Assembly (NCBI GenBank): GCA_023228285.1
Contig: JALOBM010000003.1
Location: forward strand, 18,893-82,892
DNA: 64,000 nt
Source of the DNA: Candidatus Cloacimonadota bacterium
GTDB lineage: Bacteria; Cloacimonadota; Cloacimonadia; Cloacimonadales; Cloacimonadaceae
Reading direction: 5' to 3'
The notes under the pieces are model-generated. The model saw only the letters and a program-made list of their open reading frames with translations, was not told the origin of the DNA and did not search any database. Shown in pieces: positions 8,993-49,184 of the stretch. The stretch's first letter is position 1; each line of letters begins with the position of its first letter. Made by a program: the position numbers and the translations under genes.

Positions 8993-9054
8993 AAGCTGAT
9001 ATAAAGCCGTTATAAAGCAGTGGCCACCCGATGATAACCCCATGATATCTGCTT
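8993..9054. repeat. Palindromic repeat P, copy 1
   Basis: 62-nt imperfect inverted repeat running from AAGCTGATAT to TGATATCTGCTT around a central AGTGGCCACC. It aligns without gaps to the copies at 20424, 31798 and 49123. It lies 52 bases beyond the terminator of the upstream lipoprotein gene. Confidence 0.85.
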
Positions 9055-9183
9055 TAGTACCCGTTTACATGCCAGTAGAGTAAAGAGATAGAAAATCTTC
9101 CACATTCGATAAAGCACTTAACTGGTTGATAGAATGATAGTTGTATACTACTGGTCACGTTTCATAGCTTCTTTAATCCCGAA

Positions 9184-9356
9184 TAATGCTCTGGAGTTCA
9201 AACACCTGTGCTATCTATCTCTGATAAAATAAGTTAAAGGGTAGCTTGGACTGTATGCAATGTATAGTATCCTCCCCAGTTATTTAAGTCCATTTAACCA
9301 TATAACATAGAGGTATACAATAAGATACATAAGGTCAAATGAACTCCATTGCATTA
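9184..9356 (+). mobile_element. MITE-like element E, copy 1
   Basis: 173-bp non-coding element with terminal inverted repeats: TAATGCTCTGGAGTT at the left end, and TAATGCAATGGAGTT when the right end is read in reverse complement (13 of 15 identical). The interior continues as a long imperfect inverted repeat around 9250-9270. A diverged copy in opposite orientation lies at 49282-49450, sharing blocks such as AAAATAAGTTAA, AAGTCCATTT, TATAACATA and GGTATACA. No transposase is present, so it would be a non-autonomous element. The right end lies 123 bases before the proS start. Confidence 0.72.
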
Positions 9357-9479
9357 CTTGAGTTTATAAACCCTGTCATACGAAAGCAGATAATTAGGCC
9401 GGGCCAGCGGATACTAAAGTTCATTGACAGAATGACTGCATTTATCAATGTGACATCAGGCAAAAATCATGGAGTATTG

Positions 9480-11003
9480 ATGAGCAAACAAAAGAAGACA
9501 GCTATAGAACCTACGCGAGAGCAAAATTATGCAGAATGGTACCAACAAGTTATTAAAAATGCTGATTTAGCAGAAAACAGCGATGTCCGCGGATGCATGG
9601 TTATAAAACCCTGGGGCTATGCAATATGGGAGAACATCCAGAGATCTCTAGATGTAATGTTTCGTGCTACAGGGCATCGTAATGCCTACTTCCCATTGTT
9701 TATCCCCAAATCCTACTTTGAAAAAGAAGCAGAGCATGTAGATGGTTTTGCCAAAGAATGTGCAGTGGTGACCCATTCGCGATTGGAGGATGACGGAGAG
9801 GGTGGTTTGAAGGTCGCAGGTGAATTGACCGAGCCGTTGATCGTGCGCCCAACCAGTGAAACAATCATCGGAGCATCATTTGCCAAGTGGGTAAATTCCT
9901 ACCGTGATCTTCCCCTGTTGATCAATCAATGGGCGAATATTGTGCGCTGGGAAATGCGTACCAGGCTTTTCTTGCGTACCACGGAGTTTCTCTGGCAAGA
10001 AGGGCACACAGTGCATGAAACAGCGGAAGACGCAATGGACGAAACTCTGAAGATGTTGGAAGTATATGCCAGATTTGCCGCTGAGTACCTGGCTCTACCG
10101 GTGATAACCGGAGAGAAAACAGAAGGGGAGAAATTTCCCGGAGCCGTTAATACCTATTGTATTGAAGCCATGATGCAGGATAGAAAAGCACTTCAAGCAG
10201 GAACATCCCACTTTTTGGGACAAAACTTTGCCAAGTCCTCCGGCATCAAATTTCAAGGTCGCAACGGAGAGTTTGAGTATGCCTGGACTACATCTTGGGG
10301 TGTATCAACACGCTTGATCGGAGCGCTGATAATGGCGCATAGCGATGATAATGGTTTGGCATTGCCACCAAAGATAGCACCTTCACATATAGCAATTATA
10401 CCGATCTTTCGAGATGAAGAAGAGAAAGCTGCGGTATTACAGTATTGCGAAAAGATCCAACAATTCTTCAGCAACGAGTACTTTGAGGACATCAGAATTT
10501 ACTATGAATTGGACGACAGGGATCTTACCGGTAGTGAACGGAATTGGTATTGGATCAAGAAAGGGATCCCGCTCAGAATCGAGATTGGTCCCAGAGATAT
10601 AGCCTCAGATTCTGTGATTGTTGCTCGCAGAGACCAAGAACCCCGCGAAAAACAAAGTGTTTCGCTGGCAGACTTAAAAGCTTATGTAATACAGAGTCTG
10701 AGCGAGATTCAGGAAAACTACTATCAGCGCGCACTGAGCTTTCGGAAAGAAAACACCAAGCAGATCGATGACAACAAAAAGTTCTATAAATTCTTCAGTC
10801 CCAAAAACGCTGAAATGCCAGAAATTCATGGTGGCTTTGCAGAATCTCACTGGTGCGGTGATGTAGCATGTGAAGAGAAAATAAAGGAAGATCTGAAAGT
10901 TACGATACGCTGTATCCCATTTGACGCTATTGAAGAAGAGGGGCGATGCATCTGTTGTGGCAAGACTTCCAAACGACGCGTAGTATTTGCCAAATCCTAT
11001 TGA
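9480..11003 (+). CDS. proS: Prolyl-tRNA synthetase, archaeal/eukaryotic-type
   Basis: Class II synthetase charging tRNA-Pro. The start at ATG 9480 (MSKQKK...) is preferred because GGAG lies 5 bases upstream and the protein then has 507 residues. The longer frame from 9339 would begin inside a repeat element. It is the short type without the bacterial editing insertion: the N-terminus reads EPTREQNYAEWY, and class II motif 2 carries RWEMRTRLFLRTTEFLWQEG. The C-terminal zinc-type domain contains HWCGDVACEEK and a CICCG cysteine pair and ends in Tyr, a hallmark of the archaeal/eukaryotic form. cinA starts 1 base after the stop. Confidence 0.94.
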   Translation: MSKQKKTAIEPTREQNYAEWYQQVIKNADLAENSDVRGCMVIKPWGYAIWENIQRSLDVMFRATGHRNAYFPLFIPKSYFEKEAEHVDGFAKECAVVTHSRLEDDGEGGLKVAGELTEPLIVRPTSETIIGASFAKWVNSYRDLPLLINQWANIVRWEMRTRLFLRTTEFLWQEGHTVHETAEDAMDETLKMLEVYARFAAEYLALPVITGEKTEGEKFPGAVNTYCIEAMMQDRKALQAGTSHFLGQNFAKSSGIKFQGRNGEFEYAWTTSWGVSTRLIGALIMAHSDDNGLALPPKIAPSHIAIIPIFRDEEEKAAVLQYCEKIQQFFSNEYFEDIRIYYELDDRDLTGSERNWYWIKKGIPLRIEIGPRDIASDSVIVARRDQEPREKQSVSLADLKAYVIQSLSEIQENYYQRALSFRKENTKQIDDNKKFYKFFSPKNAEMPEIHGGFAESHWCGDVACEEKIKEDLKVTIRCIPFDAIEEEGRCICCGKTSKRRVVFAKSY

Positions 11004-11004
11004 T

Positions 11005-12231
11005 ATGAAACTGAAAAGTGCGGTAATCAGCATCGGAAACGAGCTACTGATCGGGCGAACCCTGAACAGTAATCTCGCCTATCTGGGAGCGGGAATGGCG
11101 GAACTGGGCATACCGGTGGCGTACAGCTTGACCATCCAGGATGACTATGAGGCCATTCAAAAGGCAGTTCATGAGTGCTGGCAAAACTACGATGTTGTGA
11201 TTAGCACCGGAGGTTTGGGTCCTACTCAGGACGATATCACCAAAGCAGCTATTGCTGAATACTTTGGTAAGGATATGCACTTCTGCGAGAATATCTGGCA
11301 ACACATTCAGGATAGGTTTGCCCACCGCAATGTCACAATGCCCCTATCCAATCGCAGCCAGGCCATGGTGCCGGAAGGTTTTGAAGCTTTGAAGAACGAC
11401 AGGGGTACTGCTCCAGGTTTGCATTATAACACCGATGGGAAGCATATATTTGTGCTACAGGGTGTACCTCTGGAGATGCGGTATATGTTCGAAAACTACA
11501 TAAAGCCAATACTCAAACAAGCATATCACGAAGCTAAAGGGTTGGTGGTGCGAAATCTGCATACATATGGTATTGCTGAGTCTGCTTTGGCAGAATTGTT
11601 GGACCCCAAAGAGCTTCCGGAGGGAGTAAGCTTGGCTTGGCTTCCGCAAACAGGCAGAGTGGACTTGAGATTATACGGCGAGGATGCTGCGGCTATTGAG
11701 ATTGCGGAGCAGTATCTGCACAGGCAGACCGGTGACTATGTATGGGGCTATGAAGATACAGTTCCAGCAGAATATCTGCTGCAATTGTTGAAGAAAAAAG
11801 AGTATAGCCTGGCGGTTGCAGAATCATGTACTGGGGGACTGGTTCAGCGTTTTATTACGGATATTCCGGGTTCTTCAGATGTGTTCCTGGGCGGAGTGGT
11901 AAGCTATGCGAATCGGATAAAAGCCGAGCTCTTGAAGGTAGATGAGTCCATATTACGGAGTTTTGGTGCCGTAAGTGAAGAATGCGCGCGGGCTATGGCG
12001 CAGGGGATACAAAGATTGCTCCGGGCAGATGTTGTGGTAGCTGTTACCGGCATCGCTGGTCCTGATGGGGGTTCAACAGATAAACCTGTGGGTACAGTAT
12101 ACTACTGTTGGCGAATCCAGGATAAAGAATATGCTTTACACAAGGTGTTCAATGGCGATCGAGAAAGCATACGCTACAAAGCCGCTGAAGCAGCAATCTT
12201 GGAATTAGCAAATACACTAAGGAATGAGTAA
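11005..12231 (+). CDS. cinA: CinA family protein (competence/damage-inducible; pyridine nucleotide salvage)
   Basis: 408 residues with both domains of full-length CinA. The N-terminal molybdopterin-binding-like (COG1058) domain opens with ISIGNELLIGRT and has a TGGLGPTQDD loop. The C-terminal PncC-type NMN deamidase domain has AESCTGGLVQRFITDIPGSS and VTGIAGPDGG. Known activities are ADP-ribose pyrophosphatase (N-terminal) and NMN amidohydrolase (C-terminal) in NAD recycling. The start at 11005 is chosen over a TTG 18 bases upstream inside proS; no strong ribosome site is visible, so translation is probably coupled to proS. Its end overlaps purD by 8 bases. Confidence 0.93.
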   Translation: MKLKSAVISIGNELLIGRTLNSNLAYLGAGMAELGIPVAYSLTIQDDYEAIQKAVHECWQNYDVVISTGGLGPTQDDITKAAIAEYFGKDMHFCENIWQHIQDRFAHRNVTMPLSNRSQAMVPEGFEALKNDRGTAPGLHYNTDGKHIFVLQGVPLEMRYMFENYIKPILKQAYHEAKGLVVRNLHTYGIAESALAELLDPKELPEGVSLAWLPQTGRVDLRLYGEDAAAIEIAEQYLHRQTGDYVWGYEDTVPAEYLLQLLKKKEYSLAVAESCTGGLVQRFITDIPGSSDVFLGGVVSYANRIKAELLKVDESILRSFGAVSEECARAMAQGIQRLLRADVVVAVTGIAGPDGGSTDKPVGTVYYCWRIQDKEYALHKVFNGDRESIRYKAAEAAILELANTLRNE

Positions 12232-13474
12232 CGTGAAAGTATTGATACTGGGAAGCGGAGCCAGAGAGCATGCGATAGCGGATGCCTTTGACCGTAGTCC
12301 TAAAACAAGCAAAATTTACGTAAGTCCAGGGAACGATGGAATAGCAGAAAGCTTTGAGTGCATAAAGCTGGAGGGATTTGAAGAGATCAGGAACTTCTGT
12401 GAGAATACAGGGATAGATCTAGTCTTCATCGGGCCCGAACAGCCAATTGCAGAAGGTCTGTCGGATTACCTGAAACAGCACTCGATCATGGTGTTTGCTC
12501 CTTCAAAAGCCGCCGCTGCAATAGAATATTCCAAAGAATTTGCAAAAAGGATCATGGGCAAGTATCACGTACCAACAGCCAGGTATCGGATCATCCGAGA
12601 CATTAATGAAGCAGAGAGCATTCTGAAGTGCTTCAAGATGCCTGTAGTCCTGAAAGCTGATGGATTGGCAGCCGGTAAGGGAGTGGTGATATCTTCCGAT
12701 CTTAGCGAAGCGATTAAGTCGTGTAAAGTACTCCTGGAGCAGAATTGCGGAGCAAATGGAGTGCTGGCGGAAGAATATCTGGACGGCTGGGAAGTATCCC
12801 TTTTTGCTATCTGTGACGGCGAAAACTTCCGTACTACTCTTTTTGCTCAGGATCATAAACAGTTGTACGATGGTGATTTTGGGCCAAATACAGGGGGTAT
12901 GGGAGCATACTGTCCTGTACGCGAAGCTGAAGAATACCGGAAGTACATCGAAAATAAAATATTGGAACCAGTGCTAACTGCGTTAAGGGAAGAGCATTGC
13001 ACATATAGCGGGATATTGTATATGGGCTTGATGATTACTACTGAAGGGCCGAAAGTGATAGAATTCAACTGCCGTTTGGGAGATCCAGAAACTCAGGTGC
13101 TATTACCTCTTTTAAAGACTGATATCATGGATATATGTGTGGCCGCATGCGATGGTAAGGTTGATCAACTGAAGCTGGAATGGGACTCACGTTGCGCAGT
13201 CGGAGTGGTATTGGCTGCTCCGGGATATCCAGGCACTTATCGGAAAGACATTCCGATATCAATACCGCAGCTCGAATCCCAATTGTACTTTGCCGGAGTG
13301 AAAAAAACAGAAAGTGGTTTACGCAGTTCCGGAGGAAGGGTGTTGACAGTATTAGCAATTGCTGACAGTTTGGTCGAAGCACGTGATAAAGTCTATGCAG
13401 ATATAAATAAGATAAGTTTTCCGGAAATGGTCTATCGTAAAGATATCGGCCTTAGGGCAAACAAGCTTTCATGA
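12224..13474 (+). CDS. purD: Phosphoribosylamine-glycine ligase (GARS)
   Basis: ATP-grasp enzyme of de novo purine synthesis that joins glycine to 5-phosphoribosylamine. The 416 residues are close to the family norm (about 420). Landmarks are the N-terminal LGSGAREHAIA, the preATP-grasp GPEQPIAEGL, the lysine-containing KADGLAAGKGV loop, GPNTGGMGAY, and the metal-binding region ending in FNCRLGDPETQ. It overlaps cinA by 8 bases and its TGA overlaps the region of the C25 protease start. No other purine genes are in the window. Confidence 0.95.
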   Translation: MSNVKVLILGSGAREHAIADAFDRSPKTSKIYVSPGNDGIAESFECIKLEGFEEIRNFCENTGIDLVFIGPEQPIAEGLSDYLKQHSIMVFAPSKAAAAIEYSKEFAKRIMGKYHVPTARYRIIRDINEAESILKCFKMPVVLKADGLAAGKGVVISSDLSEAIKSCKVLLEQNCGANGVLAEEYLDGWEVSLFAICDGENFRTTLFAQDHKQLYDGDFGPNTGGMGAYCPVREAEEYRKYIENKILEPVLTALREEHCTYSGILYMGLMITTEGPKVIEFNCRLGDPETQVLLPLLKTDIMDICVAACDGKVDQLKLEWDSRCAVGVVLAAPGYPGTYRKDIPISIPQLESQLYFAGVKKTESGLRSSGGRVLTVLAIADSLVEARDKVYADINKISFPEMVYRKDIGLRANKLS

Positions 13475-13485
13475 AGGGAGTTATG

Positions 13486-16400
13486 ATGAGAAGACTATAT
13501 ATATGCTTGCTGATCTTGTTGCCGCTTGTTCTCTTGGCAAATCCCATCAGCGTGGTAAACGAAAACAAGGATACTATTACTCTGAAGTTTGTGATGCCCG
13601 AGTACAATCTAACAGAAATCAATGTAGATGGTTTGCGATTCAAACGTCTGATGATGGATGATGGTGTAAGCACAGCGGACGAAGGCTATCCCGAACTGAG
13701 GATGTTTAGCGTTCCTATCGCTGTTCCCATCGATGGCGGAGCTTCTGCCCGCTTGCTATCTTCAGTACAAAACACTGTAACTGAAGTATTGATCCATCCT
13801 GTTCCAACTATGGATTTGCGGGACGAAATGCCGGTGTACAGTTCCAAGAGAGATTTTCGTGCTTATTCAAAAGCAGGTATGTATCCCACACAGGTGTTGG
13901 AAGTATCCAAACCGGCTTTTGTGGGAGATCGGAGATTTGTGACTCTTCGAATATACCCCTTTCAGTATAATGCTGCCGGCAAAGAGCTGAGAGTATATCA
14001 AGAGATGGAGATCAGTGTAAATATCTCCGGAACTAAGAGCCCCGCACAGAACTGGCAGCTTGGCTACAGCCCGATTGATGTAGCAGGCGATGCTTTTTTT
14101 GTGAATAATGCCAGTTCCAAAGCATGGCGTCAGCTACCAAAACAGGATTATCAATACGAAAGCCCCAAGGGATCTGAGAATCACGTGTCTGATATCCAGA
14201 TAATCGTAGATAGCGAAGGCATATTCAAAGTTCAATACAGTAAGTTGAGAGATTTTATTGCGGAGATGACAGATTCACTGCAGGTGGAGATGAGTTGGAA
14301 CATCGACCAGGTGGATCCACGTAATCTGGAATTGAGAGATGAGTATGGGCAAGTACCGATACACTTCCATGGAGAAGAGGACGGTAGCTTCGATAATGGC
14401 GATTTCTTCGAGTTCTTTGGCGATCGGCATTACGGAGACGAACGCTATAGTGACGATTATACGGCCGAAAATGTTTATACTTTAGGTGTGACAGAAGGAT
14501 ATGGAGCCCGCATGGCCGTAGAAAACGGAGGTTTGATCAGCAGTAATCCGATGGAGTATATGCTGGCGGATGCATATCTGGAATCTGTCCATTTTGAAAA
14601 ACAATTGGTAAGCGATAAACTGGGAAGGGGATGGCAGAATAGTGATCAGGAGTTTTATCGTGAAGATGTGTGGTTTTGGGAAAAAATCAAGGCACCCAAT
14701 CTGGAAATAGTTCCCATCGAATTGGAGTATCCCATTGATAGTGCAGTCCGCAAGGGGAACACAGAAATAGCTTTACATGGCCTTACATATAATGATACTC
14801 TCTCGGTAGGGCAGGTCGATCACGATGCATCCATCAGGATAAATCAGGCTATGGTGAACACTCATTCCTGGATTGGGCAAACTGAGAAGATCTTTCTAAA
14901 CAAGGAACCGATTGCCAATTCGTTCTTTCACCACGGTACCAATAATGTCTATATCAGTCTTTCCGGAAACACAACGATGCTGGAGAAAGAACAGGTAATG
15001 TTGGATTACATCAAACTGCAGTATTGGAGAGAGTATAGAACCGACAGAGACTTCATTAAGTTTACTAAGCCCATTGATCGCCCCAATGGATTGTTCCAAT
15101 TTGATATAGGAGGGTTTTCGTCTCCCAATGTATCTGTTTACAAGATTGGCTCCAGTGTGTTTAACGGCTTACAAATAGAGCCTTTTACAATGGATGGTAC
15201 TGCTCCTTGGACCGTTAGTTTACAGGATAGTGTATCCTCAAATGCCGTCCTCTATTATGCCGTGGAAGAGGGTGCCAAAAAGAGCCCAAAACTACTGCGC
15301 ATGAACCTGCCCTCAGATCTGAAGAATCCGATGAATTCAGCAAATGTGGTCGTGATTACTCCATATCAGTTTATGGAATCGGAAGGGACTCAGATGCTGA
15401 CCGATCTCTGGTCTTCAGAAGGCCATACTGTGAAGACAGTAGATATTCAGGATATATATGATGAGTTCAACAACGGTATTGTGTCTGCCGAGGCAATTAA
15501 AGATTTTCTGACACACGCTTACAATCATTGGAGAACTCCCCGTTTGAGTCATGTAATTCTCTTGGGCGAAGGTATTGATGATACAAGGGACAACAGCCCT
15601 AGCCGCAAGTACAACCTGATTCCTGTAAAGAAGACTTGGACTTTCAAACATGGAGCAACTGCCAGCGATACCTGGTATGCCTGCATTGTGGGTGATGATT
15701 TGGTGCCGGATATCAGTCTTGCGCGCATCAATGTATGGACAGAAGAACAAATCTCAGACTATGCCCTGAAAGCTAAATCCTATCGAGACAATCTGTACAC
15801 CAACCGTCAATGGAACAACCATGTTACATTAACTGCTGGAGGCAAGATAGACGATGGAAACGACATCTTCTCTCAGCAATCCGAGAGAATCCGCCGCAGA
15901 AGCATCCCAGAACACTATCGCGTAACTAGGGTATATACCAGTACTCAAACCGTCAGCAGCGAATATTTTGGGGGCACATTTGACTTGAAAGACGCAATAA
16001 ATAGCGGTACTCAATTCGTCCAATTTATGGGGCACGGTGGCGGTCGTGTATGGGCAGATTACAACTTGTTTAACTTCAATGATGTGGCTACTTTGAACAA
16101 TCAAGTCCTTCCGGTAGTACTATCTTTGGCATGTTATGCCTCAGCATTTGATACAAACGGTGCTGCATCGATATCTGAAGCGCTTATTGCTCAACCAGAT
16201 AAAGGAGCAATCGTAACCTTGGGCTTTTCCGGATTGGGATACCTTATGCAGGATGAGGACTGGGGTCATGCCTTTAGTGAAGCTGCGTTCAAGATGGATT
16301 TCGATACCTTGGGAGAGGCATATGTATTTGCTCTGGCAAGGTACTATACGACCACTTCCAGCGCTGCCTCCAGATACGCCCTCACAAATGGGTCAGTCTA

Positions 16401-18507: not shown

Positions 18508-18518
18508 GGGGAGCAGAG

Positions 18519-19526: not shown

Positions 19527-19534
19527 GAGTAATA

Positions 19535-20308: not shown

Positions 20309-20734
20309 TCTAGTGACTCAAGGCATGAATGTTGTTTTGTTGTTGCACTGCCAAATTCCAATCTCCCAGATACTTCTGCCGATGATTCAGAAGCTTCATT
20401 CCTCTTTGGGTTATCGATACTTGAACCTGATATCATCGGGTGATCATCGGGTGAGCACAGGATGATAACACCTTGATATCAGCTTCAACACTGGATCGAA
20501 CAAAGGGGAAGATAAAAATGACTCAAAGGCTCCTTTCGGTCGCTGTAGAAATACGGAGATTGCCATCTCATGCTTGACATGACACTAGACTCGTCTTGGA
20601 AATCCCATGATTTGCTCAAGAGTGTAACCAGCCCGATGATGTACAATACAGGTACCACAAAACAACATTATAAGAAAATGCTTGACTGGAAAGACAAGCT
20701 TAGGATTTTTACGTAAAATGCGAAAGAGGAAAAT
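20309..20734. other. 426-bp gene-free stretch before the polysaccharide-export genes
   Basis: Contains repeat P copy 2 (20424-20485) and otherwise no convincing gene. A TTGACA (about 20575) and a TTGACT (about 20682) are present, but neither has a good -10 box at 16-18 bases, so no promoter is called. The sigma factor in this genome is Bacteroidota-like, so E. coli consensus may not apply. No T-tract terminator is seen after the lipoprotein gene. Confidence 0.6.
20424..20485. repeat. Palindromic repeat P, copy 2
   Basis: 62-nt imperfect inverted repeat, AACCTGATATCATC to TTGATATCAGCTT, aligning without gaps to the other three copies. Left flank CCTCTTTGGGTT and right flank AACAAAGGGGAAG are themselves roughly complementary, so the palindrome may extend to about 110 nt here. 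Confidence 0.85.
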
Positions 20735-21217: not shown

Positions 21218-21235
21218 TCTCTAAGGAAGGCATAA

Positions 21236-25261: not shown

Positions 25262-25280
25262 TAAATAAATGGAGGAATAA

Positions 25281-31797: not shown

Positions 31798-31859
31798 AAG
31801 CTGATATTATCCCGTTATCATCTAGTGTTCACTCGATCATCACTGCATGATATCTCGAT
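31798..31859. repeat. Palindromic repeat P, copy 3
   Basis: 62-nt copy between the convergent ends of ffh and the kinase-fold gene. The left arm AAGCTGATATTATC and centre AGTGTTCACTCGAT are well kept; the right arm is the most diverged of the four at its end (TGATATCTCGAT). A purine-rich flank follows (CAAAGAGAGAGAAGAC). Confidence 0.8.
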
Positions 31860-31927: not shown

Positions 31928-32548
31928 CTACACTATATCATGAAGCCAGTCTCTGTTACGCTTGCTTTGAACGGAAGGTATCATCCCGCGATGGCGGATT
32001 CGGCGCTTGTCGAAACGTTTGATGCTCTGTTGCAAGCAGCCTGTCCAGAGCTGATGGTTCAGTTGGATTTGATCCTGATAACGGTCAAGAAAGGGAGCGG
32101 CGATACTGACGAAATCTGTATATTCATATTCTTCCGCCCAAAATAACAAGAGGTGCGAGACATCGGTCTCGGGGAAGTCCTCTCTGCTATCCGAAAAATC
32201 CACAAAGTAGTAATCGGTACCACAAAGGATGATGTTCTTCGGTTGGTTATCTATGTGGCATATGCATTTATGTCCTTCCATACTCGCAGTGTGAAAATCT
32301 GCTATTGCAGAACCGAGATGGGCGGAATCAAAGCCCAACTGATCCATATATGAGGAGGCTTTTATCCTTTGAGTGCTAATATACCATAGCGATTCCCCTA
32401 TTTTCTCGGATTTTCCATGGCTGAGTAATAGGGGGACATGAGGCAGATTGAGATTGTAAACCTTCAATTCGGCTTCATAGCACTTCGGATCGCTAAAGGT
32501 CTTGATGATTTCTTTTGGATATAGTACGATATTGGGTCTGTCTATCAT
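31928..32548 (-). CDS. Kinase-fold (APH-like) phosphotransferase, unknown substrate
   Basis: 206 residues resembling aminoglycoside/choline kinase-like proteins. The catalytic-loop analogue is CHIDNQPKNIIL (about 98-109; HxDxxxxN pattern) and the metal-binding motif is VDFSD (about 118-122) where DFE/DFG is usual. The N-lobe is short with no obvious glycine loop, so activity is uncertain. Substrate cannot be told. It starts in a TAATG overlap with the beta-propeller gene upstream, so it is the last gene of the cysS group and ends facing ffh. Confidence 0.7.
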   Translation of the reverse strand: MIDRPNIVLYPKEIIKTFSDPKCYEAELKVYNLNLPHVPLLLSHGKSEKIGESLWYISTQRIKASSYMDQLGFDSAHLGSAIADFHTASMEGHKCICHIDNQPKNIILCGTDYYFVDFSDSREDFPETDVSHLLLFWAEEYEYTDFVSIAAPFLDRYQDQIQLNHQLWTGCLQQSIKRFDKRRIRHRGMIPSVQSKRNRDWLHDIV

Positions 32549-34751: not shown

Positions 34752-34761
34752 ATTTTATCCG

Positions 34762-38774: not shown

Positions 38775-38789
38775 AAGGCATATCCTCTT

Positions 38790-40156: not shown

Positions 40157-40173
40157 TTAGAAAGCTCCTTTGG

Positions 40174-41061: not shown

Positions 41062-41069
41062 ATTCAAAA

Positions 41070-42299: not shown

Positions 42300-42549
42300 G
42301 ATACCTGTTTTCAGTGTTCATTATTTCTTTTGTGATCTGCTCTACCCGGGAAAAGCCATTTCCCCTGCGTAGCATTTCACAAAAGCTGTCGATCAGAAAT
42401 TCATCAGCCTCAGCTACGATGTACACGCTTCGGTCAGGCAGATTGCGGACATATCCCGTAATCCCCATTTGCAGAGCGCTTTCTCTCGCATGATAGCGAT
42501 ATCCAACTCCCTGTACCCGGCCTCGAACGTGAATCTCGTAAATCGGCAT
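42280..42549 (-). CDS. acyP: Acylphosphatase
   Basis: 89 residues with the acylphosphatase signature GRVQGVGYRYHARESA (catalytic Arg in the GVGYR loop) and GYVRNLPDRSVYIVAEA (Asn in YVRN). Hydrolyses the carboxyl-phosphate bond of acyl phosphates. Ends EIG rather than the usual Y/F. First gene of the acyP-LysM-sigma-ptb-rlmH run. Confidence 0.93.
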   Translation of the reverse strand: MPIYEIHVRGRVQGVGYRYHARESALQMGITGYVRNLPDRSVYIVAEADEFLIDSFCEMLRRGNGFSRVEQITKEIMNTENRYHDFEIG

Positions 42550-42829
42550 AATTACTCACTTTCAGATTTAGGTTCTTTCTATTTCAGACTATGATATTTG
42601 TCAAGGATTCGTTTCAATACGGAATGTGCTCAATTGATATATCAGAAATCTGCAAAGATAGAGAAAGCAAACGACCGGGTTTCTGCTTTTCGCGGGTTTT
42701 ATCCACTTTCGCGTTTGCGGGGATGAAAGGTACAAACTGGTACTTGAAATAGATAGCTTTGATAGTACTCAAAAAAGAATCGATGTAACTGCTCAACCTG
42801 GTGCTGGCTCTTTATCAGGCATTAAGGGA

Positions 42830-43855
42830 CTATACAAATTCTGCCTTCAATTCACGTAACATCAAGTCTCTCATGGCTTCCTGCGGGTCTTTATCCTCGT
42901 ACAAGATTCTATATACCTGAGTTACGATCGGCATCTCGACATCTAGCTTTTTCGCCAGTTGATACACACTACGGGTGCTGGCAACACCTTCAGCTACCAT
43001 CTGCATGGAAGCTTGAACCTCCGCAAGAGTTTTACCTTTGCCAATCTCGTAGCCTACATAGCGATTTCGGCTATTGGGACTGATGGCTGTGGTAATAAGG
43101 TCTCCGATACCAGAGAGACCTAGAAAAGTCTCTGGTTGAGCATTCATGCTTTTTCCGAAGCGACTAATTTCTACGATTCCTCTTGTCAGAAGTGCGCCCA
43201 TAGTATTGTCCCCAAAGCCCAATCCGCTTACAATCCCAGCTGCAATGGCAATGATGTTTTTGATTGCTCCGCCAATCTCCACTCCGATAATATCTGAGCT
43301 TCTATAGGTTCTGAAGTAATGATTGGAAAATACTCCCTGGAGTCTTTTCAAGAGCTCTTCATCACTACCGGCGATCACTACTGTGGTTGGTACCTCACGA
43401 GCCACTTCTTCGGCGTGACTGGGTCCGGAAAGGGCACAAATCTTGTTGTGTACGGTTTTGGGCAGCTCTTCAATGAGTATCCTATCGATGGTTTTCAAGG
43501 TATTTTCTTCGATGCCTTTGGCAACATTCACGATTGCCATCAAATCCCGTCGGAGCCAGATCCTGGCGGCAATGTCGGAAGGAATGGAACGAAGAGTATT
43601 GCGAATGAATTGGGAAGGAGTAGCCAGGAGCATAATATCACTGCAGAAATCAGCAACATCCGCAAAAGAATCGCTGAATGCGATGCTTTCCGGCAGGCTA
43701 ATTCCTTTTAACAGAACTGGATTGGCATGGTTTTCTTTGAGCGACGCCAAAAAATCTGGATTGTACTCCCACACCAAGAGTTCATGCCCGTTTTCTGCCA
43801 GTAACTTGGCCAGAGCCAAGCCCCAACCTCCGCCACCGATGATGGATATCTTCAT
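42830..43855 (-). CDS. gpsA: Glycerol-3-phosphate dehydrogenase [NAD(P)+]
   Basis: Makes sn-glycerol-3-phosphate for phospholipid synthesis. 341 residues; N-terminal Rossmann GGGGWGLALAKLLAENGH, LATPSQFIRNTL, AKGIE, ALSGPSHAEEVA and the C-terminal catalytic segment VEIGGAIKNIIAIAAG (Lys) with GLSGIGDLITT and SRNRYVG. Length is normal. ATGA overlap with the acidic 104-residue gene upstream. The 280-bp gap after it holds no convincing gene. Confidence 0.95.
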   Translation of the reverse strand: MKISIIGGGGWGLALAKLLAENGHELLVWEYNPDFLASLKENHANPVLLKGISLPESIAFSDSFADVADFCSDIMLLATPSQFIRNTLRSIPSDIAARIWLRRDLMAIVNVAKGIEENTLKTIDRILIEELPKTVHNKICALSGPSHAEEVAREVPTTVVIAGSDEELLKRLQGVFSNHYFRTYRSSDIIGVEIGGAIKNIIAIAAGIVSGLGFGDNTMGALLTRGIVEISRFGKSMNAQPETFLGLSGIGDLITTAISPNSRNRYVGYEIGKGKTLAEVQASMQMVAEGVASTRSVYQLAKKLDVEMPIVTQVYRILYEDKDPQEAMRDLMLRELKAEFV

Positions 43856-44166
43856 TTCTTTATCAGGTCGCAGAATGCTATTAGATCCTCATCATCTTCA
43901 TCGTCATCAAAATCATCGTCTTCGTCTTCGTCTGCCACCCAATCCGGACAAAACAGGAGATCTTCTTCAAAATCCCAACCGTCCACATTAACAAAGCCGA
44001 ATTTATCCAGAGTCTCTTCTTCCCAAAAGGAATAGTGGCACACACCGTCGGCATTTGCCCACACCAGAACCGGATTTTTAAAGTGACGTAATTCTATTTT
44101 ATGATTCTCGACCAGATCCAAGAATTCCTTGATCTTTTTGCGATCTTTTTCTTGGTGAAACTCCAT
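43852..44166 (-). CDS. Acidic hypothetical protein with Asp/Glu-rich C-terminus
   Basis: 104 residues. The N-terminal two thirds are mixed helix/beta with FKNPVLVWANADGVCHYSFW and GWDFEEDLLFCPDW. Residues about 80-94 are almost all Asp/Glu before the tail LIAFCDLIKK. No signal peptide, no known motif. Its stop overlaps the gpsA start (ATGA) and it follows the outer-membrane barrel gene by 16 bases, so it is a real operon member. Function unknown. Confidence 0.78.
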   Translation of the reverse strand: MEFHQEKDRKKIKEFLDLVENHKIELRHFKNPVLVWANADGVCHYSFWEEETLDKFGFVNVDGWDFEEDLLFCPDWVADEDEDDDFDDDEDDEDLIAFCDLIKK

Positions 44167-44182
44167 GATGTACCTCGCTGTT

Positions 44183-45319
44183 CTAAAATTTATGACTTAC
44201 CGAGGCGGAGAAGCGGTTCTCGCTGAATTCTTTTAAGCGGAGCACGCTCTCATTCGGAGATTCTACATTCCTGTATATGTGCAAGTAGTCAAGTGATAAT
44301 TTCCAATCCGGATGCAGCTTCAGGTCCAAGCCGGCAGTTGTGTTGTAGATACAATACTCCCGCCCGCCATACCATTGGCTGTCTCCCTGGTAAAAGCGGT
44401 CTTCACGACTTAACTCCAGATAGGGTTGCCAACTCTGATTTTTGGTGCTATCACCGCTGAAGGGCATTTCCTTCATCCGCAGAACACAGCGATAGATATT
44501 GCTGTCGTAGCTGCCATCGTCATCGTTCAGTTCATCATAACGCGTGTTATCGTAGGTTCGGAAAGCATAGGATCCTTGCAGTGTGAAAGCGGGGAAGTGG
44601 TATCTGGCGCCGAGTTCTGTGGTGAGCCTGTTGCCATCCGCTTCGCTGAAGTATTTGTTATAATACAAGTCTTCATAACGGAGGTTCCCAAAAGCCGTAA
44701 AGTGCTTCATTGGACGGATAATAATATCTCCCCGATAGAGGTTTCTTGAATAGGAGTATTGCTCGTGGTCTCCGCTACCGTCACTATCTTTGTAATGACG
44801 GTAATAAATATGGGGATAGTAGCCATACAGAGCGCTAATACTCCAATAGTGGCGATCAACACGGATTCTGGCAATGCTGTCTGTGCGATACTTATCTTTA
44901 TTACTCAGGTTTTGGCTGATGGTTCCGGTAACGGAAGGCGTAAATGTCCACCAGCGATAAGGGATTGGATACGCTAAATCCACTCTTGTGAAGAGATTCA
45001 AGTCGTCAGTGGTTTCTGCCCAATCGAGGGCTGAACTACCGTTTTCCCATCTGGACAAATCATCATCTGACAACTGGAACAGATTATCCGAGTAACCCGC
45101 TCCAAGGCTTATCTCTCCTTCCAACTGGGCATGTGCCATGCCAAATGCAAGCAGAAACAGACTCAGGCATAAGATGATGGGGCGGAAGTTCTTTTTTCGA
45201 GCAAGACTGCGGGGGTTTCGCACTTTCTTCTCCTCAGGATACTTCATATCCTCTTGCTGATCCGGGTATATCTCGCGTTGAGATTTGGTCTCGCTACTGA
45301 TTTCTTCTGTAAAACTCAT
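44183..45319 (-). CDS. Outer-membrane beta-barrel protein linked to poly-gamma-glutamate genes
   Basis: 378 residues. An unusually long charged N-terminus (about 45 residues) precedes a signal-like hydrophobic segment ending FGMAHAQ; a later start at ATG 45247 would give a normal signal peptide. The mature part is rich in alternating aromatic/polar beta strands (SLGAGYSDNLFQL, ALYGYYPHIYYRHY, LEL, LDYLHIYRN) and ends SASVSHKF with a C-terminal Phe, the outer-membrane barrel signature. It lies downstream of pgsB-pgsC-pgsW and a secreted protein with 4-16 base gaps, so a role in moving or anchoring polymer at the outer membrane is inferred. Confidence 0.8.
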   Translation of the reverse strand: MSFTEEISSETKSQREIYPDQQEDMKYPEEKKVRNPRSLARKKNFRPIILCLSLFLLAFGMAHAQLEGEISLGAGYSDNLFQLSDDDLSRWENGSSALDWAETTDDLNLFTRVDLAYPIPYRWWTFTPSVTGTISQNLSNKDKYRTDSIARIRVDRHYWSISALYGYYPHIYYRHYKDSDGSGDHEQYSYSRNLYRGDIIIRPMKHFTAFGNLRYEDLYYNKYFSEADGNRLTTELGARYHFPAFTLQGSYAFRTYDNTRYDELNDDDGSYDSNIYRCVLRMKEMPFSGDSTKNQSWQPYLELSREDRFYQGDSQWYGGREYCIYNTTAGLDLKLHPDWKLSLDYLHIYRNVESPNESVLRLKEFSENRFSASVSHKF

Positions 45320-45323
45320 GAAT

Positions 45324-46148
45324 CTACCTGTTCTTTAGTAGATAGGGACGAGCCATGAACATATGTTCTGATTCTGCCCTCAATTCATATTGGCTACTGC
45401 CGTCATTAGCAGGCAAATCAATCTTTTTCCCTATGGTGAGATAGTTTACTCCCTGAGCACTGTATTTCGTGCTGCGAGACAGTCCGAATTCATATTCTTC
45501 CACCTTCTTACCGTTGTGCCACAGGCTGAATTTGGGCAAGGTACGGTCTGTAAGCCGGGCACGCACATACACTATACCGTCTTTGGCGTTGTTATGTGTA
45601 AAGCGGAATGCCTGTGTACTGTTGAAGGTATAGTATTCGCTGGTTGTGGAATTGTGGGAGATGTCTATCATACCGGCATGAGCATTAATTACCCGGTTTG
45701 GCACGGTCACCGGTTTCACTTTTGGTATGATCTTTTCCATCTCGTAAGCACGTAAATATATGCTGCGTTGATAGCAGAGCAATTCGATTTTTTCAGCACC
45801 TTCGGGGATCTCAAATTCGATATTGTTATAGATGTAGTATCCATCCAAGCGCTGGTTCAAGCTTAGTTCAAAGGGAATGCGATCTTTGCCGACCAGGATA
45901 AAAATCTGCGGTTTACGGAGGTTTTCTATGCTGAAACTGCGGATTTGGATGCGCTCAATTCCTTCGGTTCTCAGCGTCATGGTCTTTTCGGGCAGACTGC
46001 GATAAAACCAATGCTTAGCGTCTTCAAAATTGCGGATTCTACGGCTGCCGGGATTCTCAAAATCCATGATGCGGGTGCGATAATTTTGCCCAAAAGCTGT
46101 TAACGCCATGAGGCAAAAGAGGATCAGGAAGCTGATTTTCTTTGTCAT
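45324..46148 (-). CDS. Secreted hypothetical protein in the pgs operon
   Basis: 274 residues with a cleavable signal peptide (MTKKISFLILFCLMALTAFG) and no lipobox. The mature part is beta-rich and basic, with IQIRSFSIENLRKPQIFILV, YYIYNNIEFEIPEGAEKIEL and YVRARLTDRTLPKFSLWHNG. No family recognised. It starts 15 bases after pgsW and is followed 4 bases later by the outer-membrane barrel, so it may be a periplasmic link of the same export path. Function is inference from context. Confidence 0.75.
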   Translation of the reverse strand: MTKKISFLILFCLMALTAFGQNYRTRIMDFENPGSRRIRNFEDAKHWFYRSLPEKTMTLRTEGIERIQIRSFSIENLRKPQIFILVGKDRIPFELSLNQRLDGYYIYNNIEFEIPEGAEKIELLCYQRSIYLRAYEMEKIIPKVKPVTVPNRVINAHAGMIDISHNSTTSEYYTFNSTQAFRFTHNNAKDGIVYVRARLTDRTLPKFSLWHNGKKVEEYEFGLSRSTKYSAQGVNYLTIGKKIDLPANDGSSQYELRAESEHMFMARPYLLKNR

Positions 46149-46163
46149 TTATATAAAAGTCTC

Positions 46164-47291
46164 CTATAACTCGTCGTCCGGATCCACGATGTTTGCCATA
46201 AAACGTCTATCGTGGCGGTCAAAGATGATTACCAAGATGATGGCCAGTATCAATAGTGCAAGACAGATCGAAGCGACAGTAACATTCAGAATGGTAGAGC
46301 TGAATACCGATCCTTCTCCTGGAACTGGTTTTCTCTCCATAGTAAGGTGAAGGTTGTACTTGTCAGCCCATCTCAGAATACGGCGAATATGAAGTACGGG
46401 TACGTTTTGCTTTGCCATCTTCATCATTACGCCTTCTATCTCAAAATCGCGTTCGGCCAGCTTTGTGTTCAGTCCTTCAGGGATCAACCGGGCATTGGGT
46501 TCACTGCCTACATTGGCCAAACCTGCACCGATATTTACAAAGAGGCTATAGCGGTTGGTATCTCCCAAAAGCTCTTCATAAGCTTTCATGTGCAAGTCTA
46601 TGTTGTCATTCAAACTTGAACCCAGCAACAGCGGTACTCCGTTTCTGCTCATGGCTTCCCGAAGAGATTGGAGACCGAAGTCCGACAGACCGATACCGCG
46701 GTCTTCACTGCCGCCGATGGAAGCATATTTGCTGCTAAACTTCAGTAGTCCATTATCCTTCAAAATCCTTTCCATATCCAGCCATGTCATTTCCTCACGG
46801 TTGGCTCCGTAGGAGGCTGAAGAAAGCGATACGATGATCTGCGGGTCCAATTCCAGAACGCTGATAGCGGCGTATAACGCCAAGTTTACTGCCGGGTTGC
46901 TGCCTGTGATACCTACGGCTATCTTGTCGCCTTTTTTGACACGGGATAGTTCTTCCACAAATATGGCAGCGATATTGGGATTGATAGCAGCTTGTTTCTC
47001 CGAAAGCAGACCCCGGTCTGTAGTGATGGAAGAAAGCCGCTGACCAATCAAACCGCTGTGGAAAGGATCGTTGATGGGATCGATCTCAATACCGCGAGCC
47101 ATAATCTCTGTTTCCAGGATGTCCAGATAATCCTGCATCAGATTGACTGCGGCCAGTTTCTCTTCATAATTGTCGGTGCGAATCTCCACATAGTTGTTAC
47201 TGGCTATAAGATACAGAACCACAGATAACACAAAGAGCATTATCAGTGACCAGCCGGATTTCAGGTTGGGACGGTACATTCTGTGATTCAT
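46164..47291 (-). CDS. pgsW: Poly-gamma-glutamate system protein PgsW
   Basis: 375 residues from ATG 47291, which has GGAGGT 5 bases upstream. An N-terminal TM helix (about 13-32), an extracytoplasmic region and a C-terminal TM helix (about 335-357) facing a short basic/acidic tail. The central part has VKKGDKIAVGITGSNPAVNL and IIVSLSSASYGANREEMTW, and then LFVNIGAGLANVG; this layout belongs to the poly-gamma-glutamate system protein family found beside pgsB/pgsC in place of pgsA in many genomes. Biochemical role is unknown. It begins 1 base after the pgsC stop. Confidence 0.85.
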   Translation of the reverse strand: MNHRMYRPNLKSGWSLIMLFVLSVVLYLIASNNYVEIRTDNYEEKLAAVNLMQDYLDILETEIMARGIEIDPINDPFHSGLIGQRLSSITTDRGLLSEKQAAINPNIAAIFVEELSRVKKGDKIAVGITGSNPAVNLALYAAISVLELDPQIIVSLSSASYGANREEMTWLDMERILKDNGLLKFSSKYASIGGSEDRGIGLSDFGLQSLREAMSRNGVPLLLGSSLNDNIDLHMKAYEELLGDTNRYSLFVNIGAGLANVGSEPNARLIPEGLNTKLAERDFEIEGVMMKMAKQNVPVLHIRRILRWADKYNLHLTMERKPVPGEGSVFSSTILNVTVASICLALLILAIILVIIFDRHDRRFMANIVDPDDEL

Positions 47292-47292
47292 C

Positions 47293-47748
47293 TTAGACCT
47301 CCCCGCCAAATATCACAATCAACAATAGTTTCACCAATACCGCAGCGATGGTTATTGTAGAAAGAGTCTTCCAAAATCCCTGACGCTCAAACCAGTTTGC
47401 GATCAAGCCGGGGATGATATATCCGATAGATTGCATTTGCAATTGGTGAATAGTAAGTTCATGAAAAACCAAAAGTCTGGAAGCCCAGCCCAGGATGAAT
47501 CCGATCAATATGCTTAGTACCATTCTGCGTTTGCCAAAGAGCAGGGTAAATCTTCCCACCAAACGGATGATCCCCCAAGTAAGCAAACTGATAACCAAGG
47601 TACCCAATATCTGCATTGGTTTGTCTAAATAGAGCGCAATATAGCCGGGGACTACAATTCCGCCAGCAGATGCTCCCAACAATTCAGAAAAGATCAGACT
47701 AATGATAACGCCGAGTCCTACTGCGGCTTGTACTACTGCATCAACCAC
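47293..47748 (-). CDS. pgsC: Poly-gamma-glutamate biosynthesis membrane protein PgsC/CapC
   Basis: 151 residues, four or five hydrophobic helices. Typical PgsC start with GLGVIISLIFSELLGASAGG and IVVPGYIALYLDKP, then RRMVLSILIGFILGW and IGYIIPGLIANWFERQG. PgsC forms the membrane ligase/translocation complex with PgsB. It overlaps pgsB by 8 bases and is followed by pgsW, so the three are one translational unit. Confidence 0.92.
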   Translation of the reverse strand: MVDAVVQAAVGLGVIISLIFSELLGASAGGIVVPGYIALYLDKPMQILGTLVISLLTWGIIRLVGRFTLLFGKRRMVLSILIGFILGWASRLLVFHELTIHQLQMQSIGYIIPGLIANWFERQGFWKTLSTITIAAVLVKLLLIVIFGGEV

Positions 47749-48934
47749 GACCAGCTCCTTTATTTACTTTTGCTATTTTATGTTTGAAATGCGCCACTAT
47801 CTGAGCGCCATATTTGACCTCACCGGCTATATTCCCGATTCCCAAGACATGAGATTCCTTTTGGGTTAGATCCCAAACTTTTTGGTAGATATCTTCGGTG
47901 AGTGGTTGCCCCATTGCAAATAGCTTGTCTTTGGGAATGCCATGACTTAGAGCATAATTCTCTACCTTTTCAGGAATCTCTCCGGTAAGTAATACATAAT
48001 CATATTTCACTTGCGATAGAGCGTCGATAAGCTGCTGAGATCGGAATAGACGATCCGCACGGGAATTCACGATTATTATAGTTTGCTCACCGTTCAAATT
48101 GCCGGTAACCATGTTAATAATATAGACTGTGGATTCCGGATCGTTTGCGGCGAAGACATTGTAAAAATGGATGTCTTTTCCCCTGTCTTCAATCAAGTAC
48201 TTTTTCAGAGCGCCCGGATCCGGATTTGCGCTCTGCATTCCAGCGAGAGCCACATCCCGGGGTACTCCGGCTTCAGCACATACTGCCAAAGCAAGCTGAA
48301 CGTTTTCTTTGTGCTCAATATAACGGAATCTGCTCATCTCTTCGTCTGTGACATCAGTGGGTAATATCTTGTGAATCTTGGTGTTACGGCTTTCAGCTAC
48401 TTTTTTCAGAATGTGAAACTGGCTGTTTTCTGCCGTATAACACACTCCACCCACCGGAATCGAATTCGATAGGCTCATGGTGACACTTTGTACAGTTCCG
48501 CCCATCAGATCCAAATGATCGGGACGGCTGTTTGTTATTACCGAAATTGTGCTTTTTACAAACTTGCGTTCAGTAATCCATTGGAATACTGGATTCACAG
48601 CCATACATTCGATTACAATCGCATCGGGCTTTTCACTTGCAGCATAGCGGAAGATATATTTCTGCTCGATGATGTTCGCCCCTTGCAAGCGAATGATGGC
48701 GGCCTCTCTGCCATCGGGGAGCACTACTCGGGGTAAAGTTCCGGTAATCTTGGCGATGGTCTTTTTGCCCCCGGCACGCAAGCCAGCGGCAATCAACCTT
48801 GTAACGCTGGATTTTCCTCTGGTGCCGTTCACATGGATTCGCACAGGGATAGCCAGTACTTTATGCACATGTCTGCGATACTCCAATATCCAATGCAAGA
48901 TCAGGATAATGGTCGCAATGATCAGTATTGTCAT
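47741..48934 (-). CDS. pgsB: Poly-gamma-glutamate synthase PgsB/CapB
   Basis: 397-residue ATP-dependent amide ligase of the Mur ligase type that polymerises glutamate through gamma-carboxyl linkages. An N-terminal membrane helix (2-16) is followed by the P-loop HVNGTRGKSSVTRLIAAGLR (about 34-53), VIECMAVNP, SVITNSRPDHLDLMG and a C-terminal ligase part with NVFAANDPEST and VNSRADRLFRSQQL. First gene of the operon; a candidate promoter lies at 48991-49019. Confidence 0.93.
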   Translation of the reverse strand: MTILIIATIILILHWILEYRRHVHKVLAIPVRIHVNGTRGKSSVTRLIAAGLRAGGKKTIAKITGTLPRVVLPDGREAAIIRLQGANIIEQKYIFRYAASEKPDAIVIECMAVNPVFQWITERKFVKSTISVITNSRPDHLDLMGGTVQSVTMSLSNSIPVGGVCYTAENSQFHILKKVAESRNTKIHKILPTDVTDEEMSRFRYIEHKENVQLALAVCAEAGVPRDVALAGMQSANPDPGALKKYLIEDRGKDIHFYNVFAANDPESTVYIINMVTGNLNGEQTIIIVNSRADRLFRSQQLIDALSQVKYDYVLLTGEIPEKVENYALSHGIPKDKLFAMGQPLTEDIYQKVWDLTQKESHVLGIGNIAGEVKYGAQIVAHFKHKIAKVNKGAGRG

Positions 48935-48990
48935 CTATTCCTCATAGTAGAAATGTCTGATTACGCTACTACTCTCGCTCATTTCGGGGT

Positions 48991-49019
48991 AGTATAACCT
49001 AAAGAATGTAATGGAGCAA
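48991..49019 (-). promoter_or_regulatory. Candidate promoter for the pgsBCW operon
   Basis: On the minus strand, TTGCTC (49019-49014) and TATACT (48996-48991) are separated by 17 bases, 57 bases upstream of the pgsB ATG. It matches sigma-70-type spacing, but the local sigma factor may prefer other sequences. Prediction only. Confidence 0.4.
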
Positions 49020-49122
49020 TATCCATTCCACTAGCAGGAAAATATCCTTTTCTTTTCAGAACTGATCGAAGATGCCTGTATAAACAAATCCCGGTTCTCT
49101 CCCTCTTGATCTTCGAAGGATG

Positions 49123-49184
49123 AAGCTGTTATAATCGGGTAATGATCCAGTGGTCACTCGATGATAACGGCTTTATATCTGCTT
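49123..49184. repeat. Palindromic repeat P, copy 4
   Basis: 62-nt copy, AAGCTGTTATAATCGG to TTTATATCTGCTT around AGTGGTCACT. Left flank CTCCCTCTTGATCTTCG and right flank TGCTTGAAGCAGGGAGG are partly complementary, extending the inverted repeat to roughly 110 nt. Confidence 0.85.

What the first reader, a model, noticed from the sequence alone, without database searches (positions are those of the whole stretch)
8993..49184. Four ungapped copies of a 62-nt palindromic repeat in the four large gaps
Copies at 8993-9054, 20424-20485, 31798-31859 and 49123-49184 align base for base with no length change. The consensus runs from AAGCTGATAT, through GTTATCATC and a central AGTGGTCACT, to CGATGATAAC and ATGATATCTGCTT. 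The two halves are inverted complements. All copies lie outside genes, downstream of a gene 3' end, and none lies inside a coding region here. The fixed length together with drifting sequence suggests a conserved structure or a protein-binding site rather than recent copying. It could be a REP-like element, a nucleoid or segregation site, or a transcript-end structure. It resembles no named repeat I can recall.
Basis: seen in the sequence. Interest (0 to 1): 0.8.

Follow-up and report, generated by a model that had tools for sequence, protein, structure and literature searches.

The report
Evenly spaced chromosome-wide 11-bp palindromic sites
The four repeats belong to a set of well over a hundred similar DNA sites placed at strikingly even intervals of roughly 13,000 bases around this bacterium's chromosome, and related bacteria carry sites of the same build and spacing but often of a different sequence, which points to an unknown protein that organises the chromosome.

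Summary
The four copies are real and are the visible edge of a chromosome-wide system. In 1.16 Mb read of this 2.06-Mb genome there are 82 full-length 62-nt copies and one weak one; none of the 82 overlaps a predicted gene and no isolated half-copy was found. Each copy is an inverted array of 11-bp units. Spacing is far more even than random intergenic placement: mean 13.0 kb, minimum 5.0 kb; 0 of 5000 simulations were as even. Linker positions are anti-complementary, so a hairpin is not what is selected. UBA5210 and G005 (same genus) have related sites. G008, G001/G002 (same genus) and the complete genome G020 (another genus) carry 11-bp arrays of unrelated sequence, again spaced; the G001/G002 family was predicted from architecture at one locus. 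REP/RAYT is rejected: G002, G005 and G008 have sites and no Y1 transposase match. Best reading: binding sites of a fast-evolving, sequence-specific oligomeric protein that anchors or partitions the chromosome into ~13-kb segments. Main rival: a mobile element with target immunity. The binding protein is not identified.

The parts
8993..9054 (.). Site 1: 62-nt palindromic 11-bp-unit array, after the gene ending at 8880 and before the prolyl-tRNA synthetase gene
20424..20485 (.). Site 2: same, subfamily AACCTGATAT..., with conserved outer flanks
31798..31859 (.). Site 3: same, between convergent genes (Ffh/SRP54 gene ending 31710 and the minus-strand ORF 31928-32548)
49123..49184 (.). Site 4: same, between the PEPCK-like gene (3' end 49507, minus) and the Mur-ligase-like gene (5' end 48934, minus)
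8969..9086 (.). Approximate full extent of site 1 with its pyrimidine-rich left and purine-rich right flank (outer limits inferred from the family profile, about 25-35 nt beyond the core)
49289..49429 (-). Block B, a second intergenic repeat (related stretch 9203-9350 on the plus strand). With the DNA beside sites 1 and 4 as query, 21 places match in 1.16 Mb, 16 of them within 300 nt of a site

Best explanation
Each copy is a double-stranded DNA binding site for a sequence-specific, oligomeric protein. The subunits line up on one face of the helix, one per 11-bp unit (A-W-S-S-N-G-W-T-A-T-N in this genome), in two inverted halves around a GTGnnCAC centre. About 140 such sites divide the chromosome into segments of about 13 kb with a floor near 5 kb, and the protein uses them to anchor, bridge or partition the nucleoid, so natural selection keeps both the sites and their spacing. 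The binding protein changes specificity quickly, so that congeneric species can have sites of unrelated sequence but the same build. Shown: architecture, copy number, intergenic placement, spacing, species-specific sequence, no selection for a hairpin. Inferred: the protein, its oligomeric binding, and the role in chromosome organisation.
For: 82 copies above 58 bits in 1.16 Mb, one at 27.7, nothing else above 5; Markov-shuffled and reversed DNA below -46 bits. 84 bits of information, 29 of 62 positions at 95% or more. No isolated half-site above the threshold: the two hits outside known cores are 11 nt off a known site. Identity at lag 11 is 0.62 (G003 0.54, G005 0.47) against at most 0.35 at lags 8-10 and 12-15. 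Spacing: 63 intervals, mean 13.0 kb, CV 0.43, minimum 5.04 kb; a null drawn from intergenic gaps gives a mean CV of 0.75 and 15 intervals under 5 kb, observed 0; 0 of 5000 as even. G003: 41 sites in 486 kb, CV 0.37, minimum 5.9 kb, 0 of 5000. G008: own sequence family, 100 pattern matches against 0 control, minimum interval 9.2 kb. G020, complete chromosome: one family at 44 places, minimum 10.6 kb, where a uniform draw gives 7.7 intervals under 10 kb. G001 and G002: a family predicted from one locus, 65 and 61 matches, 0 control. Five linker pairs anti-complementary, binomial p 3e-6 to 3e-11, copies treated as independent.
Against: No binding protein was found. One subfamily (25 copies) is similar over about 135 nt including flanks, single pairs over some 260 nt, and five cores are identical, which shows copying of some kind. 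Only 5 of 11 relatives' sites in orthologous gaps are shared with this genome (pooled one-sided p 0.037, small numbers), so sites also come and go. One column pair (5/58) is complementary more often than expected, 52 of 82 against 37, and in G003 positions 13-16 show no anti-complementarity because they are nearly fixed. One of 41 G003 sites overlaps a predicted gene start by a few bases. ParB is present in ordinary form, so ordinary segregation is not replaced.
Confidence: 0.5

Rival explanations
1. A non-autonomous mobile element (MITE-like) moved by a transposase with target immunity of the Mu, Tn7 or Tn3 kind. Immunity keeps new insertions several kb from old ones and so makes the spacing even; each species carries its own family.
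For: Mu cis-immunity in vivo is strongest around 5 kb and decays over 5-25 kb (PMC7350765, passages), close to the floor seen here. Subfamily with conserved flanks and identical cores. Several G001/G002 elements end in an inverted CTTCCCTATTGG / CCAATAGGGAAG or close variants. In the six G003 gap pairs where one genome has a site and the other none, the gap with the site is 76-198 nt longer; the two G005 pairs differ by +310 and -119 nt. Families differ by species.
Against: One weak and no truncated copies in 1.16 Mb although copies differ by about 20%. Some shared orthologous positions between species whose proteins are 78% identical at the median. rve transposases are sparse and of mixed kinds; this 96.8%-complete genome has one match, in a 302-aa frame. 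No obvious target duplication in the ten G001/G002 loci, looked at by eye and partly masked.
Confidence: 0.25
2. A wrapping site for a general DNA topology enzyme or bender (gyrase, HU), as reported for BIME-2 and gyrase: phased flexible steps bend the DNA, and the sites relieve supercoils every ~13 kb.
For: 11-bp phasing over 60-110 bp, symmetrical arms, sites nearer to the upstream 3' end than to the downstream start in 31 of 40 co-directional cases, domain-like spacing. BIME-2 binding of gyrase: PMC2817692, passage.
Against: Base-specific invariance at 29 positions and complete change of sequence between congeners are not expected of a conserved enzyme with weak sequence preference (established knowledge, not tested).
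Confidence: 0.1
3. A self-marker: a site that stops or redirects a processive defence nuclease or helicase (Chi-like), with even spacing because each site protects a stretch, and fast sequence change through an arms race.
For: Even spacing; species-specific sequence; no exact match in viral contigs for the joint own/UBA5210 pattern.
Against: The site is long and palindromic, unlike Chi. Defence genes were not searched for. The absence from viruses is an exact-pattern test of one family only.
Confidence: 0.06
4. REP/BIME-type elements spread by a RAYT (Y1 tyrosine transposase).
For: Intergenic, palindromic, more than 100 copies, species-specific sequence; this genome does have one Y1_Tnp match.
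Against: No Y1_Tnp match in G002 (90% complete), G005 and G008 (99%), all with sites. No site in the 2-kb locus around the Y1_Tnp match of this genome. No hairpin selection, even spacing.
Confidence: 0.02
5. A structured RNA or transcription terminator at transcript ends.
For: Two of four copies fold well (plus strand z -4.1 and -4.5, minus strand -4.1 and -3.9).
Against: The other two fold no better than shuffles on either strand; complementarity is below expectation at linkers; 22 of 77 copies lie between divergent genes; no Rfam match at the sites.
Confidence: 0.02

Closest known systems
Dispersed nucleoid sites: matS (MatP) and SlmA sites of E. coli
   Same: Short palindromic DNA sites scattered over a chromosome, read by one specific protein that organises the chromosome or division
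   Different: 12-13 bp; 23 matS sites within Ter, 50 SlmA sites with none in Ter (PMC3116907, passages); here 62-110 bp, about 140 sites, even spacing with a hard floor, sequence changing between congeners
SegB sites of Sulfolobales archaea
   Same: Palindromic sites scattered over the chromosome, linking organisation and segregation
   Different: 13 bp, 39 peaks, 83.7% inside genes and clustered near segAB in S. solfataricus (PMC12284271, passages); here 0 of 82 in predicted genes and evenly spread
ParR/parC plasmid centromeres
   Same: Arrays of short repeats (R1 ParR needs at least two 11-bp repeats) whose sequence differs between families and sets specificity (PMC9426499, passages)
   Different: A plasmid centromere of direct repeats upstream of parM; here over a hundred inverted arrays on a chromosome, and no ParM/ParR was looked for
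REP/BIME with RAYT
   Same: Intergenic, palindromic, over 100 copies, sequence specific to the host (PMC2817692, abstract and passages)
   Different: Table entries there are about 21-37 nt with a GT(A/G)G head and a RAYT; sites here are longer, lack hairpin selection, occur without RAYT and are evenly spaced along the chromosome
MITEs and transposons with target immunity (Mu, Tn3, Tn7)
   Same: Inverted-repeat element in many intergenic places; immunity gives a minimum spacing
   Different: Hardly any decayed copies, no identified transposase, partly conserved positions

Membership tests
REP/RAYT | A RAYT (Y1 transposase) gene in each genome with the repeats | tested here: not met
   0 Y1_Tnp matches in G002, G005 and G008, which have sites
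REP/RAYT | rayt gene flanked by two inverted REPs | tested here: not met
   no site in the 2-kb locus L119 around the only Y1_Tnp match of this genome; one side is cut short by the contig end
REP/RAYT | Hairpin with compensatory changes | tested here: not met
   complementary pairs at linkers below expectation (13-50: 16 of 82 against 41); one pair, 5-58, above it (52 against 37)
MITE | Terminal inverted repeats | tested here: inconclusive
   the whole element is an inverted array; outer CTTCC/GGAAG ends in G001/G002 and similar ones in G020
MITE | Target-site duplication and empty sites | tested here: inconclusive
   none seen by eye in 10 loci, some with masked flanks; gap lengths differ, junctions not aligned
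MITE | Copies of all ages, including decayed and truncated ones (expected of neutral copies) | tested here: not met
   83 hits above 5 bits: 82 above 58, one at 27.7; no isolated halves
matS/SBS-type nucleoid site | Dispersed palindromic sites bound by one specific protein | not testable with these tools
   sites shown; protein unknown
parS/ParB | Match to the parS consensus and clustering | tested here: not met
   the site does not resemble parS (consensus recalled) and is spread evenly; one ParB per genus member searched; matches to parS with up to 2 mismatches are about as frequent as the reversed control, this genome has one with 1 mismatch at C1:127410
ParR/parC-like iteron array | Tandem ~11-bp repeats | tested here: met
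   lag-11 identity 0.47-0.62, other lags at most 0.35
ParR/parC-like iteron array | Adjacent parM/parR genes | not tested
   no search made
Rfam RNA family | Match to a described RNA family | tested here: not met
   window matches at gathering score are one tRNA and one 6S RNA only

The most novel reading that the evidence does not exclude
Cloacimonadota chromosomes carry a distributed, centromere-like anchoring system: over a hundred iteron arrays of fixed build, one every ~13 kb, held at even spacing by selection and read by a protein whose specificity is rewritten between sister species, a bacterial counterpart of holocentric chromosomes with their fast-evolving repeats.
Probability: 0.3. 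Interest if true: 0.95.

Novelty: categorically new. Interest (0 to 1): 0.86.

Why it matters
Evenly spaced, sequence-specific sites over a whole bacterial chromosome are not a feature of any of the families compared above, and here build and spacing are kept while the sequence is replaced. If they are nucleoid anchors or domain boundaries, they make the old question of what sets the ~10-kb scale of bacterial chromosome domains directly testable: the sites can be listed, mapped onto contact maps, and used as bait for the protein. If they come instead from a mobile element with target immunity, they would be a natural record of immunity acting on a whole chromosome. 'Categorically new' refers to the observed combination; the function is not settled.

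Tried and rejected
Hairpin RNA or cruciform: rejected by negative covariation and weak folds. Rfam: only a tRNA and 6S RNA. Link of site orientation to gene direction (34 co-directional cases with a clear orientation: 20 against 14) or GC skew (70 cases: 40 against 30): none convincing. ParB/parS: not the same site. RAYT: rejected. rve transposases: 27 of 34 genomes have a match, sparse and of mixed kinds, no common partner evident. Sequence models R1 and R2 found nothing in G008, G001 and G002; only the sequence-free detector led to them. A threshold on palindromy alone was too weak. A looser combined threshold gave many chance peaks (696 for 82 known). At z >= 8.5, lag 11 gave 81 peaks covering 79 of 82 known sites over the 19 own contigs, lag 10 three peaks and lag 12 one. 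In G008 the same cut found only 5 of the 14 sites of contig C1 plus one other place, so its sensitivity varies by family. Papers: looked for such repeats in print (Cloacimonadota or Cloacimonas with palindromes or repeats; regularly, evenly or periodically spaced palindromes with chromosome organisation). I saw their listings only (titles and abstract starts, for example 20 of 2,294) and noticed no description; two searches looked for comparison systems. A 2025 survey of REPs (PMC12306157) does not contain the word Cloacimon- (term search of its text). The held library lacks most subscription journals.
Full report
OBSERVATION. The four copies at 8993, 20424, 31798 and 49123 align over 62 nt without gaps, 42-47 of 62 identical pairwise. 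A scan that knows nothing of their sequence, only palindromy plus identity at lag 11, returns these four places and no others in the window, none in one shuffle of the window and none in 50 kb of E. coli K-12. Of the eight neighbouring proteins scanned against Pfam, six have a match, among them prolyl-tRNA synthetase, Ffh, a PEPCK-like and a Mur-ligase-like protein.

GENOME. The window is part of contig C3 of a 2.06-Mb genome in 90 contigs. The half-site pattern with up to 3 mismatches has 134 forward and 139 reverse matches, and 0 and 0 when read backwards. A full site can match once on each strand, so this is about 140 sites; the density found below gives about 145. I read 19 contigs, whole or in part, 1.16 Mb. 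An iterated position matrix finds 82 sites above 58 bits, one at 27.7 (left out of the counts of 82) and nothing else above 5 bits; 500 kb of Markov-shuffled DNA and the reversed contigs stay below -46 bits. None of the 82 overlaps a gene predicted by my own simple caller (940 genes, 90% coding).

ANATOMY. The site is built of 11-bp units, A-W-S-S-N-G-W-T-A-T-N, just under three per half, inverted around GTGnnCAC. Identity at lag 11 within halves is 0.62; at lags 8-10 and 12-15 it is 0.14-0.33. 29 of 62 positions are at least 95% fixed; total information is 84 bits. The variable letters are mostly in the linkers, and at five linker pairs the two halves are complementary less often than expected: columns 13/50, 16 of 82 against 41; 14/49, 15 against 40; 16/47, 9 against 27; 26/37, 9 against 37; 31/32, 8 against 27 (binomial p 3e-6 to 3e-11, treating copies as independent, which related copies are not). 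One pair, 5/58, goes the other way, 52 against 37; most of the rest are at expectation because they hardly vary. A hairpin in RNA or DNA is therefore not what is selected. Fold energies agree: two of four copies are no better than shuffles on either strand, two fold well. In G003 the anti-complementarity is seen only near the centre (25/38, 9 of 33 against 17; 31/32, 5 against 9.5), since positions 14 and 15 are nearly fixed there. Beyond the core lie a further 11-bp-like unit and an outer pyrimidine-rich (left) and purine-rich (right) flank. A subfamily of 25 copies has similar flanks from about -40 to +95 nt, single pairs over some 260 nt.

SPACING. 63 intervals within contigs: mean 13.0 kb, CV 0.43, range 5.0-30.3 kb. 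As a null I drew the same number of sites per contig from the 187 intergenic gaps of at least 185 nt, weighted by how often gaps of that length hold a site. For the 77 sites in such gaps (58 intervals) the observed CV is 0.43 with no interval under 5 kb; the draws gave a mean CV of 0.75 and a mean of 15 intervals under 5 kb (never fewer than 6); 0 of 5000 were as even. Unoccupied gaps of 400 nt or more (40) lie a median 4.0 kb from the nearest site; occupied ones a median 10.4 kb from the next site.

RELATIVES. With the sequence model R1 only G003 of 58 other genomes responded. It is Cloacimonetes bacterium UBA5210. It has 41 sites in 486 kb, 62 nt, minimum interval 5.9 kb, CV 0.37, again 0 of 5000 null draws as even; one of the 41 overlaps a predicted gene start by a few bases. 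A joint model R2 also found two matches in G005 and one in G009, of 40 genomes. G005 has a diverged version: 8 strong sites in 190 kb, with intervals of 18.0, 17.3, 14.5 and 36.9 kb; a weak candidate lies inside the longest. The sequence-free detector then showed unrelated sequence families of the same build. G008: 16 sites in 240 kb, mean 15.3 kb, CV 0.25, minimum 11.0 kb; 100 genome-wide matches to its pattern, 0 control, and at most one match in each of the other 33 genomes searched. From the 92 of those 100 that share a contig with another, 67 intervals have a mean of 16.7 kb, CV 0.42 and a minimum of 9.2 kb. G020, another genus of the family, one complete contig of 2,246,820 bases: one family at 44 places after merging strands, minimum interval 10.6 kb, where a uniform draw (not an intergenic one) gives 7.7 intervals under 10 kb; 0 of 20000 draws were as extreme. 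In the 200 kb read of it, 8 places pass z >= 8.5 at lag 11 (2, 0, 0 and 0 at lags 9, 10, 12 and 13): six of this family and two of another 11-bp sequence; two more arrays I picked by eye from lower scores, and the ten together have a minimum interval of 10.6 kb. A locus of G001 fetched for another reason showed an 11-bp array. I predicted a genome-wide family from it and found 65 matches in G001 and 61 in G002, 0 control, none in 18 other genomes. Their intervals, from the 32 and 31 sites on contigs with at least two, are 9.6 kb and 6.8 kb at minimum, with CV 0.51 and 0.62; means and CV there are inflated because the pattern misses diverged sites. So 6 of 12 genomes of this genus, plus one of another genus, are shown to have such a family. 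For the other six genus members only loci of about 3 kb or none were read; G011 holds one copy of the G008-type site and G009 one match to R2.

POSITIONS. Where two neighbouring genes are neighbours in both genomes and the gaps are at least 100 nt or hold a site, G003 and this genome both have a site in 4 gaps, only G003 in 5, only this genome in 1, neither in 8 (one-sided p 0.15). With G005: 1, 1, 1 and 10. Pooled one-sided Fisher p is 0.037; the weak own site at C13:16483 and the weak G005 site at C6:20516 are counted as sites here. So there is some retention and much turnover.

MECHANISM. Fixed length, one-face phasing, 84 bits of sequence, hardly any decayed copies and even spacing point to a selected protein-binding site whose function depends on distance along the chromosome. 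I favour a chromosome-organising protein (0.5). The strongest rival is an element with target immunity (0.25): Mu immunity has the right range (passages), and copying is visible in one subfamily, but decayed copies and a common transposase are missing. RAYT is excluded by the absence of Y1_Tnp matches from G002, G005 and G008. A single ParB is present in this genome and in each of the 11 other genus members searched; parS-like matches are no more frequent than the control in this genome, with one 1-mismatch site. No exact match to the joint pattern exists in the viral contigs, and in the species collection only UBA5210 has one (records near this genome may be left out there).

LIMITS. Gene calls are home-made; genomes other than G020 are fragmented, and contigs sometimes begin near sites, but G020 shows a floor on a complete chromosome. 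The binding protein was not found. The identity of G020 with Candidatus Cloacimonas acidaminovorans is recalled from its length, not taken from a call.

Noticed in passing
window 9203-9350 (+) and 49289-49429 (-): A second intergenic repeat (block B), 84% identical over 93 nt between the two places. With the DNA beside sites 1 and 4 as query, 21 places match in the 1.16 Mb read, 16 of them within 300 nt of a site; a similar stretch also shows beside a UBA5210 site (by eye).
   Followed up: partly
G020 contig C1, 101454 and 160766: A near-perfect palindrome of 11-bp units of another sequence, one copy about 850 nt from an rve transposase match, within the otherwise even series of sites.
   Followed up: no
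own genome C13:16483: The only weak copy (27.7 bits) sits in the gap orthologous to a strong UBA5210 site, so weak copies can still be true sites.
   Followed up: yes
window 2836-3012 (+): 6S RNA (Rfam RF00013, 56.1 bits).
   Followed up: no
G001/G002 loci L239-L248 and G020 sites: Outer ends like CTTCC.../...GGAAG are shared between genera although the inner units differ, which suggests a second conserved contact or element end.
   Followed up: partly
several own contigs (C2, C4, C5, C8, C16): Contigs of this assembly begin within about 510 nt of a site, as if flanking repeats broke the assembly.
   Followed up: no
G008 contig C1, about 121321: The one strong lag-11 palindrome of that contig that is not a family member holds inverted TTATCCAC-type words, like DnaA boxes (motif recalled), so it may be the replication origin.
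   Followed up: no
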